Below, in pieces: positions 2,597 to 24,091 of a stretch of 64,000 nt of DNA; position 1 is the first letter of the stretch; each line of letters opens with the position of its first letter. The notes beneath the pieces are model-generated. The model was not told the origin of the DNA. It did not search any database and saw only the letters and a program-made list of their open reading frames with translations. The stretch lies in assembly GCF_030687575.1 (NCBI RefSeq), contig NZ_CP117439.1:992001-1056000 (forward strand). Reading direction: 5' to 3'. The translations under genes were made by a program, and so were the position numbers. Source of the stretch: Pseudomonas sp. FP2309 (GTDB taxonomy: Bacteria; Pseudomonadota; Gammaproteobacteria; Pseudomonadales; Pseudomonadaceae).

Positions 2597-3649
2597 ATGA
2601 GCAAATTCTGGAGCGCCTTCGTCAAGGACCTCGTGCCTTACGTGCCTGGCGAGCAGCCGAAGCTGACCAAACTGGTCAAGCTCAACACCAATGAAAACCC
2701 CTATGGCCCGTCGCCCAAGGCGCTGGCCGCGATGCAGGCCGAGTTGAACGATAACTTGCGCCTGTACCCGGACCCCAACAGCGACCTGCTCAAGCAAGCG
2801 GTGGCCAAGTATTACGCGATCGATGCCGGCAAGGTGTTCCTCGGCAACGGTTCCGATGAAGTGTTGGCGCATATCTTCCACGGTCTGTTCCAGCACGATT
2901 TGCCGCTTTTGTTCCCGGACATCAGCTACAGCTTCTATCCGGTGTACTGCGGCCTCTACGGCATCCAGTCCGAGCCGGTGCCGCTGGATGAGCAGTTCCA
3001 GATCCGTGTCGCGGACTACGCCAGGCCTAACGGCGGGATCATTTTCCCCAACCCCAACGCACCGACCGGCTGCGTGCTGGCACTGGACGCGGTGGAGCAG
3101 ATTCTCAAGGCCAGCCCGGACTCGGTGGTGGTGGTCGATGAAGCCTATATCGACTTCGGCGGCGAAACCGCCATCAGCCTGGTGGACCGCTACCCGAACC
3201 TGCTGGTGACCCAGACCCTGTCCAAGTCGCGCTCACTGGCCGGTTTGCGTGTGGGCCTGGCCGTGGGCCACCCGGACCTGATCGAGGCGCTGGAGCGGGT
3301 CAAGAACAGCTTCAACTCCTATCCGCTGGATCGCCTGGCGATTGTCGGCGCGGCGGCGGCGTTCGAGGACCGTGAGTATTTCGAGAAAACCTGCCAGCAG
3401 GTGATCGACAGCCGGAACACGCTTGTCGCGCAACTGGAAGCCAAGGGGTTTGAGGTGCTGCCGTCGGCGGCCAACTTCATCTTTGCTCGTCACCCACGGC
3501 ACGACGCTGCTGGTCTGGCGGCCAAATTGCGTGAGCAGGGTGTGATCGTGCGCCACTTCAAGCAGGAGCGGATTGCCCAGTTCCTGCGGATCAGCATCGG
3601 TACGCGGGAGCAGAATCAGGCGTTGATCGAGGGGCTCGGCGAGCTCTAA
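2597..3649 (+). CDS. hisC: Histidinol-phosphate aminotransferase
   Basis: PLP-dependent class II aminotransferase converting imidazole-acetol phosphate and glutamate to histidinol phosphate. It has 350 residues. [12 protein letters not shown] (29-40) is the substrate-binding N-terminus, NPNAPTG lies at 152-158, the aspartate contacting the PLP ring is in [11 protein letters not shown], and K210 in [16 protein letters not shown] is the Schiff-base lysine. It begins 3 bp after hisD. It is the last gene of this block and faces uraA, with a terminator hairpin in between. Confidence 0.96.
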
Positions 3650-18046: not shown

Positions 18047-18130
18047 CAACTGTACCTTTTGCGACAGGGTTCGAAGGCGTAGTCTCCCGAGCCTATCAGA
18101 TGAAATAATCCGTTACTTAATGGAGTGAGT

Positions 18131-18763
18131 ATGTACGTCGCCGAGTTTTTGACCGTGGCCTTGATCCACCTGTTGGCGGTCGCCAGCCCCGGCCCGGATT
18201 TCGCAGTGGTGGTCCGCGAAAGCGTGACCCACGGCCGCCGCGCCGGCACCTGGACCGCCTTGGGCGTGGGTTCGGCGATTTTCCTGCACGTGGGCTACTC
18301 GTTGCTCGGCATCGGCTTGATCGTGTCCCAGTCCATCGTGCTGTTCAACGCGCTCAAATGGGCGGCGGCGGCGTACCTGCTGTACATCGGCTTCAAGGCC
18401 CTGCGTGCGCAACCGGCCAAGCCTTCCGCCGAAGGCGAGTTGCACCGAGAAGCGGGCGAGCGCACCCCGCGCGGCGCGTTCACAGCGGGTTTTGTGACCA
18501 ATGGCCTGAACCCAAAGGCCACGCTGTTCTTCCTGTCGCTGTTTACCGTGGTGATCAACCCGCACACACCGCTGGCGGTGCAGGCCGGTTACGGCGTGTA
18601 CCTGGCGGTGGCGACGGCATTGTGGTTTTGCCTGGTGGCCATGTTGTTCAGCCAGCAGCGTGTACGCGCCGGGTTTGCGCGGATGGGGCACTGGTTTGAT
18701 CGGATGATGGGGGCGGTGTTGATTGCGATTGGGGTGAAGCTGGCGTTTACCAGCATGAAATAA
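18131..18763 (+). CDS. LysE/RhtB-family amino-acid exporter
   Basis: A 210-residue inner-membrane translocator with about six hydrophobic segments. The N-terminus HLLAVASPGPDFAVVVRESVTHG is the LysE-family signature, and FVTNGLNPKATLFFLSLF the second conserved block. Such proteins export amino acids or homoserine lactone-like solutes. The ATG at 18131 lies 5 nt after GGAG. It is divergent from the dehydrogenase gene. The substrate is unknown. Confidence 0.88.
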   Translation: MYVAEFLTVALIHLLAVASPGPDFAVVVRESVTHGRRAGTWTALGVGSAIFLHVGYSLLGIGLIVSQSIVLFNALKWAAAAYLLYIGFKALRAQPAKPSAEGELHREAGERTPRGAFTAGFVTNGLNPKATLFFLSLFTVVINPHTPLAVQAGYGVYLAVATALWFCLVAMLFSQQRVRAGFARMGHWFDRMMGAVLIAIGVKLAFTSMK

Positions 18764-18860
18764 GAAAACGCCGTAGAAAAAGGTTTTATTGCTACCGCAG
18801 GATTTGAACGGGCGTTTTTCTAGAGTTGTAGGTGTTAAATAGGGCTGCATGATGCAGCCC
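18763..18860. terminator. Hairpins downstream of the LysE-type gene
   Basis: Near-perfect arms AGAAAACGCC (18763-18772) and GGCGTTTTTCT (18811-18821) are separated by 38 bases, an unusually long loop. A second hairpin, GGGCTGC/GCAGCCC around ATGAT, lies at 18842-18860. Together they mark the boundary to the AT-rich region that follows. Confidence 0.5.
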
Positions 18861-18899
18861 ACATATTTGCGCTTTTCTTTTTTAATCATGTCCTCAGGT

Positions 18900-19472
18900 C
18901 TATAGTGACTGAAATTTCAGTCTGGCTCGACAGAGTCTCTCATCTTCATCGTAAACACTTCTGGTTAGTTCGCAATTTTTCTTGTGGTAATCAGTTTCTT
19001 CAGGCAGCTTTTTTAAGCTTTCAATGTGTAAGAGTATTTCGTCTCTGCTTTTTGAAGAAATACTACTTATGAATAGAAGCGCATTGTAGAAGCCGTCACT
19101 ACTAACTCCTGTATCCAAGTGAAATAATTCCACCAGTCTCGATGAAGTTAAAGAAATCAAGCATCCCATTTTTTCGATTTCAGCCTCTTCACCCGGAAAA
19201 GTAGACTCGTAAACTTCTCTGCAGTGCGCATCTCTATATTTGATCCATGCGCGTTCAATGTCGATAAGAGATTTTTTGTTAAAAAAAACACGCGATGCAA
19301 GCATTTTTGAATACTGCTTGTTAAGGTTTTTGTCAGTTTTTTCGTACAGAATGGTTGCACACTGCAGAATATCTTTCGTTGTCATACTGGTGTTGTCGCA
19401 ATCACCTTCAGCAAAGGTTGGTGAAGTAAGTAAAAAGCCTAAAGCGCTTATAACTATTGCCAGCAATCGCAT
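18900..19472 (-). CDS. Secreted LprI-type lysozyme-inhibitor protein, probable immunity protein
   Basis: A 190-residue protein with an N-terminal signal peptide (LLAIVISALGFLLTSPTFA, residues 3-21). The mature N-terminal half has the DUF1311/LprI pattern: paired cysteines, DKNLNKQYSKML, IERAWIKYRDAHCREVYE and a further Cys (GCLISLTSSR). LprI-type proteins inhibit lysozymes in the periplasm. The start codon lies 19 bp inside the end of the upstream lysozyme-domain gene, so the two are translationally coupled. This fits an immunity protein protecting the periplasm from the partner muramidase. It is strongly AT-rich: one 60-base line (19261-19320) has 19 G or C. The role is inferred. Confidence 0.75.
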   Translation of the reverse strand: MRLLAIVISALGFLLTSPTFAEGDCDNTSMTTKDILQCATILYEKTDKNLNKQYSKMLASRVFFNKKSLIDIERAWIKYRDAHCREVYESTFPGEEAEIEKMGCLISLTSSRLVELFHLDTGVSSDGFYNALLFISSISSKSRDEILLHIESLKKLPEETDYHKKNCELTRSVYDEDERLCRARLKFQSL

Positions 19473-22108
19473 GTCAGACCTCTTTCAAAAAGTTTTGCTT
19501 CTTCCTCGCGACGAATTATTACCCCTCCAAGCCCCGCTTTTCCTTCCCAAAGCCTTTTCATCGAACGAAGCCTGGATGGGATTTTCTCTGGGGCAAGGTT
19601 TAACAAGTCTTCGCTAATTTGTTTCATTTCTAAGCGAGAATCGAGATCTGGCCGAGAAAAAGATGTTCCTCTGTTGACCACAAGGGATAACAGTGCCCCC
19701 TGGCAATGTGGATGCAGATTCATTGCGCCCGGATAAGCTTCGATTACCAGTTGCGCATAACGTTTTTTCATTTTTACTGCGAGGGATATGGCGTTTTCTT
19801 TACTGATTGAAATGTGATTTAAAGAGCTCAGTATGTCCCTCGCCTGAATACCTTGCCTCCCAATAGCAGCTATCAGAGTATCAATGTCTGATTGACTATA
19901 AATTTGTGCAAGGTCGTTACGGACTTGCGCTATTGTTTGCTGTCCTAAGTCGTATCCAAACCCGAGGGTAACTCCGCTCGCACCTGCCGGGACGTAGGGG
20001 TACCTGCTATACCCTTCCTTATCTAAAATAAATTGGAAGGACTCCTTTGAAACGGTAAGTGTGCCAGTAATTCCTTCCAGTTCATAAACATCAGGAACGC
20101 ACTCTTTAGGACGCTCAGCGTTAAATCTCATAGCCAAACCGATTGGATGCAAGTGATAAACCCGACCATCCACCGGCAACCCCACTTCCGCCGCCACTTC
20201 ATTCCACCAACTGATCTCCTTGATCCGCTCCTTCTCCGCCAACCAGTTCAAAAGTGGAGTCGAGCTGCTATGCCCGAGTACTTCGTCCAGCGCGTCCCAC
20301 TTATGGGGGGCGTGGCGCCACTCGCTTTCGTAGAGGATGATCAGTTGCGACAGGGACTGCGCGTGTGCCGGTAAAACAATTGCTGCCTGCAACTCTTTAG
20401 CCGTCATTTTTCCATCACGATCACGGTCAATAATGTCGTACAGACGACTCTTCATCGGCCCCTTATCCGACATGTCGGCCCACGGGCCGTGGCGTTCGAG
20501 TTGTTCTTCATTGAAACGACCAGCCGCTCGAAAAAAGGAAGCCAGGGTTTGCTGAGGAGAGTCATAGTTGAAGATGACGTCGTAGCCTTCCCACGACCAC
20601 GGACTTACCCAAGGTGTGACACCCACTTCTTCACGCACCCAACCATCGAGTAGCACACGGTTCGCATCGTGGAATAGCCCATCAAGCCGATACCAGTTGC
20701 AGGCGCTTCGATCTGGCGTTGCGGTGACTACGATCTTTTTGTCTGCCGGCAGGCCATCAATCAGGCTTTTAGGCACCAGTAGATCAGCATCACTGGGTGT
20801 GCTGGCGGCGCTGAGCGTGGGTGGCTGTGTGGCGTTGAAACGCTCCTGATGCGTCACCACAGCGGAACCTTTGGAGAATTTCAGCCAGGTCTTGCTGGCA
20901 GCAGGCAGTCGCTGGGCCCAGGCACGACTTGCCTCGACAAATGGCTCTACGTGGTCGTCACTGAACGCTTCTAGGTGCAACTTCTTTTCCGGGTGCTCGG
21001 CATTGCCGTCTTGGTACTCGCCAATGTGACCGATCAAATCGCCCGCCTTGATCGCGATGGGTTGATCGAGCACTACGATGCGGTCGGCTATCGGCTCCAG
21101 GGCGCCTTCCAGCGAATTGAAATGAACGTACTGATTAACACGCTCCAACTTGCGAAACCTGCCTTCACCGCTGACGGTAACTTCCGTGCCATCGGGCAAC
21201 TCCATAAGGACGGCGCTGCTGGTGTTCGCTTCTGCGCGGACGCGCAGTGAGGGATCCGCTTTGACCCGATACTCATCTCCGACGATGGGGACCAGATAAT
21301 CAACCGAAAGGAAACCGAGAAGTGAGCCATCGGTATTTTTCAGTACGTCTGGCCCGTTAGTGTTTTCCAGCTTGCGATATTCACCCTGACCGCTGACGGT
21401 CACCTCCGCGCCGCGTGGCAGCAGTGCCAACACCTTGCCGCCTTGTGCCTGGTTACGCACATTCAAGCCCCGTTGCTCAGGTGTGCCCGCGCGTACATCC
21501 CTAACCGTCGTCTTGACCCGGCGGGTCCGCCCCTCGGGCCAGAATGTCTGACGGGGGATGGAGGGATCATTCCGGTAAATCGCCCAGTCCTGCAGGTGCA
21601 TATACAGGCTATAAAAGACCAGGCTCGGCGGGACGTCTGGGCTTCCCTCAATCCTGGGCGCTTCGAGTCGATGGCGGACGAGCACAAAGTTGCGTGAAAA
21701 TGGCTTGGATACGCACAGCTTTTCAACGAAGTAGGTCGTGGTCGGCGAGAGCTCGTCGATGCGATAGGCCACCACTTCTCCGTCGGCCAGACAATGCACG
21801 CGGGATTGATCCAAGGTACCGGCTGTGCCGCTGTCGAAATGCACCCCAGCGTGCCAAAGGCCATTGCGGCCCAATGGGTAATAACCCGCAACTGCCTTGG
21901 CCATTTGGGTTAGTTGCAGCAATGGGTTGGTCTTGTCCTTGAAGGGATGACTCCAGTTCCTCAATGGCGTCAGTGCGGAATCGCTGGTTTGCGTAAGCGG
22001 TTGCGACGGAGCCGGCGACGTCTGCCGTGTCGGAGGGGCCGACACATAAATCGGCTCCTTCCTGTCAGGACTGAGGAGATCAACTGTCCGAGAAAACAAA
22101 TTCGCCAT
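19454..22108 (-). CDS. Multidomain peptidoglycan-hydrolase toxin (M23-like, SH3 x2, EF-hand, lysozyme-like)
   Basis: An 884-residue protein with no signal peptide. Residues about 75-390 form an M23/LytM-like fold (WHAGVHFD at 85-92, HCLADGEVVAY, YSLYMHL, AGDLIGHIGEY, KLHLEAF at 376-382). Two bacterial SH3 domains are inserted in it (about 212-272 and 286-325). An EF-hand loop is at 561-572 (DRDRDGKMTAKE). Residues about 690-884 look like a T4-lysozyme or pesticin-type muramidase, with E698 in DKEGY as candidate catalytic Glu, LGFGYDLG, and LSLVVNRGTSF. Lack of a signal peptide, a coupled periplasmic inhibitor gene and a modular C-terminus point to an interbacterial effector, perhaps delivered by type VI secretion. 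No VgrG, PAAR or Hcp gene is in the window. A phage-type origin is the alternative. Confidence 0.72.
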   Translation of the reverse strand: MANLFSRTVDLLSPDRKEPIYVSAPPTRQTSPAPSQPLTQTSDSALTPLRNWSHPFKDKTNPLLQLTQMAKAVAGYYPLGRNGLWHAGVHFDSGTAGTLDQSRVHCLADGEVVAYRIDELSPTTTYFVEKLCVSKPFSRNFVLVRHRLEAPRIEGSPDVPPSLVFYSLYMHLQDWAIYRNDPSIPRQTFWPEGRTRRVKTTVRDVRAGTPEQRGLNVRNQAQGGKVLALLPRGAEVTVSGQGEYRKLENTNGPDVLKNTDGSLLGFLSVDYLVPIVGDEYRVKADPSLRVRAEANTSSAVLMELPDGTEVTVSGEGRFRKLERVNQYVHFNSLEGALEPIADRIVVLDQPIAIKAGDLIGHIGEYQDGNAEHPEKKLHLEAFSDDHVEPFVEASRAWAQRLPAASKTWLKFSKGSAVVTHQERFNATQPPTLSAASTPSDADLLVPKSLIDGLPADKKIVVTATPDRSACNWYRLDGLFHDANRVLLDGWVREEVGVTPWVSPWSWEGYDVIFNYDSPQQTLASFFRAAGRFNEEQLERHGPWADMSDKGPMKSRLYDIIDRDRDGKMTAKELQAAIVLPAHAQSLSQLIILYESEWRHAPHKWDALDEVLGHSSSTPLLNWLAEKERIKEISWWNEVAAEVGLPVDGRVYHLHPIGLAMRFNAERPKECVPDVYELEGITGTLTVSKESFQFILDKEGYSRYPYVPAGASGVTLGFGYDLGQQTIAQVRNDLAQIYSQSDIDTLIAAIGRQGIQARDILSSLNHISISKENAISLAVKMKKRYAQLVIEAYPGAMNLHPHCQGALLSLVVNRGTSFSRPDLDSRLEMKQISEDLLNLAPEKIPSRLRSMKRLWEGKAGLGGVIIRREEEAKLFERGLTCDCWQ

Positions 22109-22118
22109 GGTGTTTCAC

Positions 22119-22343
22119 TCAAAATTTGCAATAGGGCAACCCAGCGATATCCATAAGTCCCTGGATTGGCAACGTCACAGAGAGTAAAGAGTTGCTATCC
22201 GTGGCGAATGTCAGAAGGTTCGCCTTTCCGTGAAGGTTGGTTCCTGATGTTATTTGCTCAATTGGCGAAACGGTGGATGGCGCAAAGCCAGCATTTACTG
22301 CCCTCTGCAAATCATTCCTTTGGCTGATTTGGCTGAAACACAA
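22119..22343 (-). pseudogene. Probable 3' remnant of a gene upstream of the toxin gene
   Basis: An open stretch whose only starts are weak (TTG at 22343, no ribosome site), ending with a stop 10 bp before the toxin ATG. The peptide reads naturally toward its end (HGKANLLTFATDSNSLLSV, then a GLPYCKF terminus) and looks like the C-terminus of a larger protein. The frame is closed by a TGA a short way upstream. I do not recognise the parent family. It may be what is left of an adaptor or preceding gene of the toxin operon. A short real gene or chance frame is possible. Confidence 0.35.
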
Positions 22344-22399
22344 GCGCTCTACAGTGCAGGACGTTCAGCCAAGACCGTGCAGTCATAAAAGGGATTCAT

Positions 22400-24091
22400 A
22401 TGTTGCAGACCCGTGTTATTCCTCCCGCCGAAGGTGCGTACCAGTACCCGTTGTTGATCAAGCGCCTGTTGATGTCCGGCGCTCGCTACGAAAAGACCCG
22501 GGAAATCGTCTACCGCGACAAATTGCGCTACACCTACCCGACGCTGATCGAACGGGTCGCGCGCCTGGCCAATGTGCTGAGCGAAGCCGGGGTCAAGGCC
22601 GGTGACACCGTGGCGGTGATGGACTGGGACAGCCATCGCTACCTGGAATGCATGTTTGCGATTCCGATGATTGGCGCGGTTATCCATACCATCAACGTGC
22701 GCCTGTCGCCGGAACAGATCCTCTACACCATGAACCATGCCGAGGACCGCTTTGTGCTGGTCAACAGCGAGTTCGTGGGGCTTTATCAAGCGATTGCGGG
22801 GCAGCTCACCACCGTCGACAAGACCCTGTTGCTTACCGACGGCGAAGCCAAGACCGCCGACCTGCCAAACCTGGTGGGCGAGTACGAAAACCTGCTGGCC
22901 GCTGCCAGCCCCCGGTACGACTTCCAGGACTTCGACGAACATTCCGTCGCCACCACCTTCTACACCACCGGCACCACCGGCACCACCGGCAACCCCAAAG
23001 GGGTGTACTTCACCCATCGCCAGTTGGTGCTGCACACCATCGGTGTGGCGACCATTATGGGCAGCGTCGACAGCGTGCGCCTGCTGGGCACCAACGACGT
23101 GTACATGCCGATCACGCCGATGTTTCACGTACATGCCTGGGGCCTGCCGTATGTGGCGACCATGCTCGGCCTGAAACAGGTTTACCCAGGTCGCTACGAC
23201 CCGGAATACCTGGTGGAGCTGTGGCGCAAAGAGAAGGTCACGTTCTCCCACTGCGTGCCGACCATCCTGCAAATGGTGCTCAATGCCAAGGCGGCCCAGG
23301 GCGTGGATTTCGGTGGCTGGAAAATCGTGATCGGCGGCAGCGCGCTCAACCGCTCGCTGTATGAAGCGTCCAAGGCCCGTGGCATTCAGTTGACCGCTGC
23401 GTACGGCATGTCCGAGACCGGGCCGTTGGTGTCCTGTGCCCACCTCAACGAAGAGCTGCTGGCGGGCAGCGAAGATGAGCGCATCACCTACCGCATCAAG
23501 GCCGGCGTGCCGGGGCCGTTGGTGGAAGCGGCGATCATCGACAGCGAGGGCAACTTCCTGCCCGCCGACGGTGAGTCCCAGGGTGAGCTGGTGCTGCGTG
23601 CGCCGTGGTTGACCGAGGGTTATTACAACGAGCCGCAAAAGGGCGCCGAGCTGTGGGCCGGCGGCTGGATGCACACTGGTGACGTGGCCACCCTGGATGC
23701 CTTCGGCGTGATCGATATTCGCGACCGCATCAAGGACGTGATCAAGACCGGTGGCGAATGGATCTCCTCCCTGGCCCTCGAAGACCTGGTCAGCCGTCAC
23801 CCGGCGGTACGCGAAGTAGCGGTGGTGGGCATTGCCGACCCGCAGTGGGGCGAACGCCCGTTTGCGCTGTTGGTGGTGCATGATGGCCATGTGATAGGGG
23901 CCCGCGAGCTCAAGGAGCACCTCAAGCCTTTTGTCGAATTGGGCCATTTGAGCAAGTGGGCGATCCCGAGTCAGATCGCCGTTGTTACGGAAATTCCCAA
24001 GACCAGCGTCGGCAAGCTCGACAAGAAACGTATCCGTATCGACATCATTGAATGGCAGGCCAACAACAGTACCTTCCTGTCCACCCTTTGA
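22400..24091 (+). CDS. AlkK-like fatty acyl-CoA ligase
   Basis: A 563-residue member of the AMP-forming acyl-CoA synthetase family, resembling medium-chain fatty-acid ligases of the AlkK type. It activates a carboxylic acid to an acyl-adenylate and then the CoA thioester. Motifs: the phosphate-binding loop at 187-204, AAYGMSETGPLVS, GWMHTGDVATLD, DRIKDVIKTGGEWIS, and the C-terminal lysine in PKTSVGKLDKKRIR. The loop is unusual: Thr-Thr-Gly occurs three times (189-197), from a 9-bp unit repeated in tandem, where two are usual before NPKG. The DUF1302/DUF1329 pair and the LuxR gene follow. Confidence 0.9.
   Translation: MLQTRVIPPAEGAYQYPLLIKRLLMSGARYEKTREIVYRDKLRYTYPTLIERVARLANVLSEAGVKAGDTVAVMDWDSHRYLECMFAIPMIGAVIHTINVRLSPEQILYTMNHAEDRFVLVNSEFVGLYQAIAGQLTTVDKTLLLTDGEAKTADLPNLVGEYENLLAAASPRYDFQDFDEHSVATTFYTTGTTGTTGNPKGVYFTHRQLVLHTIGVATIMGSVDSVRLLGTNDVYMPITPMFHVHAWGLPYVATMLGLKQVYPGRYDPEYLVELWRKEKVTFSHCVPTILQMVLNAKAAQGVDFGGWKIVIGGSALNRSLYEASKARGIQLTAAYGMSETGPLVSCAHLNEELLAGSEDERITYRIKAGVPGPLVEAAIIDSEGNFLPADGESQGELVLRAPWLTEGYYNEPQKGAELWAGGWMHTGDVATLDAFGVIDIRDRIKDVIKTGGEWISSLALEDLVSRHPAVREVAVVGIADPQWGERPFALLVVHDGHVIGARELKEHLKPFVELGHLSKWAIPSQIAVVTEIPKTSVGKLDKKRIRIDIIEWQANNSTFLSTL

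What the first reader, a model, noticed from the sequence alone, without database searches (positions are those of the whole stretch)
18900..22108. Orphan muramidase toxin with a coupled LprI-type inhibitor: a probable effector-immunity pair
Seen: an 884-residue protein without signal peptide, carrying an M23-like fold, two SH3 domains, an EF-hand loop and a C-terminal lysozyme-like domain. Its gene overlaps by 19 bp a gene for a signal-peptide-bearing DUF1311/LprI protein. Known: LprI-type proteins inhibit lysozymes in the periplasm, and effector genes for cell-wall hydrolases usually sit beside periplasmic immunity genes. Inferred: this is an interbacterial peptidoglycan-hydrolase effector with a lysozyme-inhibitor immunity protein. 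I know of no described pair with exactly this domain order.
Basis: partly seen in the sequence, partly recalled or inferred. Interest (0 to 1): 0.78.

Follow-up and report, generated by a model that had tools for sequence, protein, structure and literature searches.

The report
Orphan cell-wall toxin with lysozyme-inhibitor antidote
The two overlapping genes most likely make a toxin that a bacterium injects into rival bacteria to cut their cell wall, and the antidote that protects its own cells; the toxin belongs to a recently described class, and its killing end and antidote appear to move between genes as one exchangeable unit.

Summary
In detail: an 884-aa protein (19454-22108, minus) overlaps by 19 nt a 190-aa LprI/DUF1311 protein. 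The effector-immunity reading is supported, but the protein is not unclassified. It carries the WHxxxH motif and bipartite block of the WHIX class of T6SS effectors, two SH3 repeats, an EF-hand loop and a pesticin-type muramidase tail (E698, T714, D720). The same genome has a 58%-identical paralogue directly behind VgrG in a T6SS cluster. VgrG lies upstream of 78 of 115 homologues. LprI partners occur with 14 of 34 pesticin-type tails and 0 of 78 others. Partner family changes 3 times on the tail tree (the minimum) but 13 times on the platform tree (shuffle level), so tail plus immunity move as a cassette. The pair is a 3.5-kb insertion between genes that lie under 200 bp apart in relatives. 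Relatives of the pair sit on 6-kb mobilizable Enterobacter plasmids; two plasmids of one strain differ chiefly in tail plus following gene. New member of a known kind; delivery, toxicity and protection are untested, and no structure could be predicted.

The parts
19454..22108 (-). Effector gene, 884 aa: WHIX/TseP-type delivery platform (aa 1-662) plus pesticin-type muramidase tail (aa 663-884)
   Evidence: ORF; Pfam; homologues; own-genome paralogue
20123..22108 (-). Platform, aa 1-662, shared by homologues with different tails; GC 56.9%
   Evidence: many homologue alignments stop at aa 660-668; A3; GC
21839..21856 (-). WHxxxH motif (WHAGVH, aa 85-90) that names the WHIX class
   Evidence: H86 and H90 each in 112 of 115 rows
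21365..21472 (-). SH3 repeat 1 (about aa 213-248)
   Evidence: internal repeat
21146..21253 (-). SH3 repeat 2 (about aa 286-321)
   Evidence: Pfam SH3_3 aa 287-315; profile A3 matches solved SH3-like chains there
20393..20428 (-). EF-hand loop aa 561-572
   Evidence: Pfam below cut-off; EF-hand_6 in 16 of 30 members at E 0.01
19457..20122 (-). Tail aa 663-884: pesticin-type muramidase; GC 45.6%; candidate triad E698, T714, D720
   Evidence: Pfam; tail profile matches pesticin structures, 4.5e-6; E, T, D invariant in 22 of 22 tails; GC
18900..19472 (-). Immunity gene, 190-aa LprI/DUF1311 protein with signal-like start and a C-terminal extension with a Cys pair; GC 38.6%
   Evidence: GC
19454..19472 (-). 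19-nt overlap of the two genes, kept in the window-type clade
18764..22277 (.). Insertion holding this gene pair; blastn leaves 44 bp (L202) and 8 bp (L203) in its place in two relatives
   Evidence: blastn of flanks; flank genes
18125..18763 (+). Left flank of the insertion: LysE-type transporter gene (not part of the pair)
   Evidence: Pfam
22400..24091 (+). Right flank: AMP-binding ligase gene (not part of the pair)
   Evidence: Pfam

Best explanation
The pair is an orphan type VI secretion effector and its immunity gene. The effector's first 662 residues are a WHIX/TseP-type platform that docks on a VgrG spike and probably has zinc-amidase activity of its own; the last 222 residues are a pesticin-type muramidase. 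The cell's T6SS (most likely with the VgrG at G000:C1:1618586) injects it into the periplasm of a rival, where the tail cuts the glycan strands. The LprI-type protein is exported to the producer's periplasm and blocks the muramidase tail in attacks by kin. Tail and LprI are one low-GC module that is exchanged between platforms, and the pair itself was inserted here without any T6SS gene. Shown by sequence: class motif, gene order, module exchange, insertion. Inferred: secretion, target, both enzyme activities, inhibition, and which VgrG carries it.
For: Paralogue 58% identical over aa 7-735, overlapping a VgrG gene by 4 nt and followed at a distance by PAAR, in a cluster with Hcp, an AAA/Clp-type ATPase, IcmF and ImpA; two VipB genes in the genome. 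VgrG upstream of 78 of 115 homologues. WHxxxH present; H86, H90, H171, H361, H378, E596 each kept in 112 to 115 of 115 rows. The tail families Pfam names on this platform are peptidoglycan hydrolases or chitinase-like: Pesticin, GH19, Muramidase, VgrG3-like. The tail profile matches pesticin structures and, by position in the printed alignment, puts T714 and D720 on pesticin T201 and D207, which with E178 are reported as important for catalysis (PMC9927483 passage). LprI partner: 14 of 34 pesticin-type tails, 0 of 78 others (Fisher 6e-9, not corrected for relatedness). Partner family changes 3 times on the tail tree, minimum 3, shuffled mean 14.6, against 13 on the platform tree of the same 34 rows, shuffled mean 14.5. 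GC falls from 56.9 (platform) to 45.6 (tail) to 38.6 (LprI) in a 60.5% window. VgrGs next to five close-platform homologues (L034, L101, L037, L130, L046) match the VgrG at 1618586 best over the last 170 aa: 72-75% against 48-52% and 27-30% for two other own VgrGs.
Against: No VgrG or PAAR match in the 64-kb window, so delivery rests on genes elsewhere. For the carrier: over the whole VgrG the first two own copies differ little (73-78% against 70-76%), two own VgrGs were not compared, and the VgrGs of two window-type-tail homologues with distant platforms (L140, L141) match none of the three well. No sigma-70-like promoter was found at 18600-22500 (shuffles give 2.5). No structure was obtained. 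TseP's own sequence was not aligned: the match of its metal residues rests on order and spacing. LprI partners fall in two separate pesticin subclades (9 and 5 rows), and 20 of 34 pesticin-type tails have another partner or none, so LprI is not the only answer to this fold. The shuffles show clustering only, near-copies add to it, and that tree warns of long branches meeting. The paralogue's own tail reaches no Pfam family.
Confidence: 0.86

Rival explanations
1. The protein is a phage- or prophage-derived endolysin or tail lysozyme left in the chromosome, and the LprI protein is an unrelated neighbour.
For: The tail belongs to the pesticin/phage-lysozyme superfamily and matches 3 of 50,697 phage records, one annotated endolysin; PHROG hits of unknown function.
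Against: LprI has no phage match at E 1e-3; the 9 window-type rows keep the LprI gene with the same 19-nt overlap; VgrG upstream of 78 of 115 homologues; the neighbouring genes tested by Pfam are metabolic, methyltransferase or transport genes.
Confidence: 0.04
2. The pair is a bacteriocin-like system released by lysis, as with plasmid-borne pesticin (recalled), not a T6SS cargo.
For: Relatives of the pair are carried by 6-kb mobilizable plasmids with no VgrG or PAAR match, a layout like that of bacteriocin plasmids (recalled); the tail is pesticin-like.
Against: The platform is the WHIX block, reported as sufficient for T6SS secretion in Awe1 (PMC12135965 passage), and VgrG lies upstream of 78 of 115 homologues. 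Receptor-binding or lysis genes were not searched for, and the plasmid gene tables are incomplete.
Confidence: 0.07
3. A decayed or silent effector copy: inserted away from VgrG, no longer expressed or delivered, kept for the immunity gene.
For: No VgrG in the window; no promoter-like site found; orphan immunity genes are known in T6SS biology (PMC12247911, title and abstract start in the listing).
Against: Intact 884-aa frame with the conserved platform and tail residues; 31 of 115 homologues have no VgrG upstream, so the orphan state is common.
Confidence: 0.12
4. The LprI protein protects against host or environmental lysozymes rather than against this effector.
For: LprI of mycobacteria is described as a lysozyme inhibitor (as cited in PMC8867033 passage).
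Against: It follows tail type rather than platform, and on sister plasmids it is absent where the tail differs.
Confidence: 0.06

Closest known systems
WHIX class of T6SS effectors (PMC12135965; section 6 and passages seen)
   Same: WHxxxH motif, bipartite conserved block, peptidoglycan-targeting C-terminal tail (pesticin-type listed, 448 proteins), signal-peptide neighbours including DUF1311/LprI.
   Different: The window copy is an orphan insertion with SH3 repeats between the two blocks; secretion untested. Cassette exchange and small-plasmid carriage were not seen in that paper: the terms 'recombination', 'mobile genetic' and 'plasmid-borne' do not occur in its main text.
TseP/TsiP of Aeromonas dhakensis (PMC11893102; abstract, sections 6 and 9, passages seen)
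   Same: Amidase-type N domain, EF-hand, lysozyme C domain, lower GC in the tail; six His/Glu residues with like order and roughly like spacing.
   Different: TseP's reported active residues are E654/E663, against a pesticin-type E-T-D set here; whether TsiP is LprI-like was not tested.
VgrG3cp/TsiV3cp of Vibrio cholerae (PMC9927483; passages seen)
   Same: Pesticin-type muramidase tail delivered by T6SS, with T201 and D207 equivalents, and an immunity protein.
   Different: There the tail is fused to VgrG itself.
Salmonella T6SS LysM effector with LprI-domain immunity (SED_RS06235/06230, PMC8867033; passages seen)
   Same: Predicted peptidoglycan hydrolase effector beside a signal-peptide LprI protein.
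   Different: A 290-aa effector with LysM; WHIX is not mentioned in the passages seen.

Membership tests
WHIX-class T6SS effector | WHxxxH motif in the first conserved region | tested here: met
   WHAGVH aa 85-90; W85 in 109, H86 in 112, H90 in 112 of 115 rows
WHIX-class T6SS effector | Bipartite conserved block with variable middle | tested here: met
   Invariant columns of A3 (30 rows) fall in W52-Y178 and I353-W634, none between; not aligned to the published reference sequence
WHIX-class T6SS effector | C-terminal peptidoglycan-targeting domain | tested here: met
   Pesticin PF16754, pesticin structures
WHIX-class T6SS effector | Genome encodes a T6SS | tested here: met
   Two VipB and five VgrG matches; cluster in L003
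WHIX-class T6SS effector | T6SS-dependent secretion | not testable with these tools
   needs a secretion assay
TseP-like amidase-lysozyme | Zn-site residues H19, H23, H109, H339, H359, E539 of TseP | tested here: inconclusive
   Candidates H86, H90, H171, H361, H378, E596 conserved; mapped by order and spacing, TseP itself not aligned
TseP-like amidase-lysozyme | EF-hand | tested here: met
   12-residue loop at aa 561; Pfam score below cut-off
TseP-like amidase-lysozyme | Amidase and lysozyme activity | not testable with these tools
   needs an enzyme assay
Pesticin-type muramidase (PF16754) | Profile score above curated cut-off | tested here: met
   30.4 bits against 25.8
Pesticin-type muramidase (PF16754) | E178-T201-D207 equivalents | tested here: met
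   T and D aligned; E, T, D invariant in 22 of 22 tails; E698 as match of E178 is by order only, outside the aligned stretch
LprI/DUF1311 lysozyme inhibitor | Profile score above curated cut-off | tested here: met
   60.8 bits against 22
LprI/DUF1311 lysozyme inhibitor | Export signal | tested here: inconclusive
   signal peptide read by eye; no predictor run
LprI/DUF1311 lysozyme inhibitor | Inhibits a lysozyme | not testable with these tools
   needs a binding or protection assay
M23 peptidase | Profile match to Peptidase_M23 | tested here: not met
   No match for the window protein at E 1; 1 of 30 homologues at E 0.01

The most novel reading that the evidence does not exclude
WHIX effector-immunity pairs behave as self-contained mobile ammunition: tail plus immunity is a low-GC cassette recombined onto platforms through near-identical platform stubs, and whole pairs travel as cargo of small mobilizable plasmids or as single-pair insertions, using whatever T6SS and VgrG the host has.
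Probability: 0.5. Interest if true: 0.65.

Novelty: new member of a known kind. Interest (0 to 1): 0.45.

Why it matters
It ties an unplaced 'muramidase plus inhibitor' pair to a T6SS effector class and shows which half travels with the immunity gene. If small plasmids do carry T6SS ammunition that the host machine fires, weapon repertoires could change by plasmid uptake alone, and LprI proteins beside such genes could be read as cognate antidotes rather than general lysozyme defence.

Tried and rejected
Structure prediction: searches were all answered 'machine is busy'; none ran, so no fold search was made.

M23 peptidase as name of the N domain: not supported by Pfam. Endolysin: rejected. 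PADLOC defence families: none. NCBIfam: no family for the effector, a UmoC hit far below cut-off for LprI.

LprI copies further along other loci: my iterated profile drifted; of three large proteins so flagged only one has the Pfam LprI domain, so I draw nothing from them. The drift makes the profile more permissive, so 0 of 78 is conservative. Of the 14 LprI rows, 9 were checked by Pfam and all matched; 5 were not (L101, L107, L141, L142, L145).

An off-by-one start spoiled the Hcp query, so Hcp next to homologues was not tested. VgrG counts: 77 of 115 with a narrower distance rule, 78 with -700 to 1000 nt. Rows dropped before counts: ORFs under 600 aa or ending before query residue 630; 142 to 115 by identical last 600 residues; 115 to 112 by tails under 100 aa.
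Full report
Observation. Pfam gives Pesticin (aa 693-795), SH3_3 (aa 287-315) and a sub-threshold EF-hand in the large protein, LprI in the small one; there is no M23 match.

Own genome. The window lies in a 5.66-Mb single-contig genome. The genome holds one paralogue, 58% identical over aa 7-735. It overlaps a VgrG gene by 4 nt and is followed by a 155-aa protein with a signal-like start and, further on, a PAAR gene, in a cluster with Hcp, an AAA/Clp-type ATPase, IcmF and ImpA. Its tail aligns with the window's but reaches no Pfam family, and its partner shows none either.

Family. In 298 genomes of the genus (own included), 52 have a match at E 1e-20 or better; at most three candidates per genome were scored. 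Many alignments stop near aa 660-668, the sign of one platform with different tails. Sixty-two near-complete homologues (window and paralogue included) gave tail clusters of 30, 22, 3, 2 and four singletons, with one row too short. Representatives match GH19 (below cut-off), Pesticin, Muramidase PF11860 and VgrG3-like PF21277; across 30 members GH19 is found in 4, best 7e-7. With 80 named loci from genome contigs (capped at the best 80 of 403) the set grew to 142 and, without duplicates, 115.

Class. The platform has WHAGVH at aa 85-90. The WHIX paper defines the class by a WHxxxH motif in a bipartite block, lists pesticin-type tails and DUF1311/LprI neighbours, and reports secretion (PMC12135965, section 6 and passages). 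TseP is a related amidase-lysozyme effector with an EF-hand (PMC11893102). H86, H90, H171, H361, H378 and E596 are kept in 112 to 115 of 115 rows and have the order and roughly the spacing of TseP's six metal-site residues; TseP itself was not aligned.

Tail. A profile of 22 tails matches pesticin structures (E 4.5e-6); counting along the printed alignment puts T714 and D720 on pesticin T201 and D207. E698, T714 and D720 are invariant in 22 of 22. The pesticin triad E178, T201, D207 is as quoted in PMC9927483. Free-standing relatives of 251-260 aa occur in 7 of 369 genomes of the class sample, in five families, with no LprI-profile hit in the stretch around them.

Immunity. In the 112 rows with a usable tail, an LprI gene is the immediate partner of 14 of 34 pesticin-type tails and 0 of 78 others. 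The 9 rows of the window-type clade all have it, with the 19-nt overlap. Of the eight with enough contig, six have VgrG upstream; L036 and the window do not. In an alignment of seven of these rows plus the Burkholderia arboris and Enterobacter relatives the LprI protein has six invariant cysteines, two of them in a C-terminal extension.

Cassette. On the tail tree (34 rows) partner families change 3 times, the minimum, with shuffled mean 14.6. On the platform tree of the same rows they change 13 times, shuffled mean 14.5, as low in 52 of 200 shuffles. Tail type changes 43 times on a quick platform tree of 112 rows; no shuffle was run for that count. GC drops from 56.9% (platform) to 45.6% (tail) and 38.6% (LprI). 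TseP's authors report a similar GC step.

Displaced modules. Of six loci examined, five (L053, L057, L040, L139, L109) carry a second copy of the end of the platform behind the first gene, the longest repeat in each being 87.8 to 98.8% identical in DNA over 294 to 662 bp; in L053, L057 and L139 it is fused to another tail with its own partner. L087 showed no such repeat. L057 and L139 are near-copies. This resembles the orphan toxin modules of CDI and Rhs systems (PMC3150448, PMC3482391; abstract starts in the listing).

Insertion. In relatives G004 and G017 the matches to the flanking LysE and ligase genes lie 169 and 134 bp apart. Blastn of the flanks runs to window 18763/18764 and resumes at 22278, with 44 and 8 bp between in these relatives; two more relatives (L210, L211) break at 18751 and resume at 22274/22278. 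The window has 3.5 kb there, filled mostly by this pair. In five other relatives (L204-L208) different genes lie between the flanks. No convincing terminal repeat was found (the best direct pair near the ends is 17 nt at 82%); transposases were not searched for.

Plasmids. A protein search at E 1e-10 hit 69 of 72,556 plasmid records, 20 listed. In Burkholderia arboris the order is a VgrG-like ORF, WHIX protein with a window-type tail (44% identical), LprI; in B. multivorans the effector homologue is followed by genes annotated LprI and PAAR. A 6,036-bp mobilizable Enterobacter plasmid carries a 750-aa WHGGIH protein with a window-type tail (52% identical) overlapping an LprI gene by 4 nt. A sister plasmid of the same strain is 99.2% identical over nt 1-2120 and 97.3% from nt 3257 on, but the segment between, tail from aa 536 plus LprI, is replaced by another tail and a gene annotated on the opposite strand. 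A third, 6,209 bp, has a 53%-identical effector with LprI; its tail is only 24% identical to the window's. Others carry the motif with tails that do not match the window's: 4,323, 8,798 and 6,678 bp (the last an E. coli plasmid typed non-mobilizable), and a 12,591-bp plasmid carries it in a gene that runs across the record start. No VgrG or PAAR match was found in the seven records scanned. Two literature searches aimed at this, WHIX (2 papers in all) and small plasmids with T6SS effectors (15 of 106 listed), and a term search of the WHIX paper showed nothing on it; they cover only open papers.

Mechanism. VgrGs beside five close-platform homologues match the own VgrG at 1618586 best over the last 170 residues; over the whole length the gap to a second own VgrG is small, three of five own VgrGs were compared, and the VgrGs of L140 and L141 match none well. 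I infer that this VgrG carries the orphan, that the muramidase acts in the victim's periplasm, and that LprI blocks the tail in the producer's periplasm. None of these steps is shown.

Verdict. What is added is the class, the module behaviour and the mobile carriage. The corrections made on re-checking (gap sizes, scope of plasmid and literature statements) did not require a change of odds.

Noticed in passing
L053, L040, L057, L139, L109: Second, displaced copies of the platform end behind a first WHIX gene, in three loci (L053, L057, L139) fused to another tail with its own partner; DNA 88-99% identical to the first copy.
   Followed up: partly
L215, L218, L219, L220, L221, L222, L223: Small plasmids of Enterobacter and E. 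coli carry WHxxxH effector genes; two from one strain differ chiefly in tail plus following gene.
   Followed up: partly
L190-L196: Free-standing 251-260 aa pesticin-like proteins in seven genomes of five other families, no LprI-profile hit nearby; function unknown.
   Followed up: partly
L213:3699-9677: Array of near-identical ~190-aa ORFs behind another own VgrG, looking like stacked immunity copies; not Pfam-tested.
   Followed up: no
L214:10803-15149: 1448-aa ORF after a VgrG-like gene in the second T6SS region, looks PAAR/Rhs-like by eye; not Pfam-tested.
   Followed up: no
L204-L208: Between the same two flanking genes five other relatives have different genes (by eye a transporter plus regulator, or a thiolase), so the site takes varied content.
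   Followed up: no
L066:1073-2455: 461-aa protein with an LprI domain near a VgrG-WHIX locus that has another partner; possible second immunity.
   Followed up: no
plasmid records H30-H72: Escherichia plasmids (42 of 68 hit records by first word) hold distant WHIX-like matches; four of those listed are annotated 'calcium sensor EFh'.
   Followed up: no
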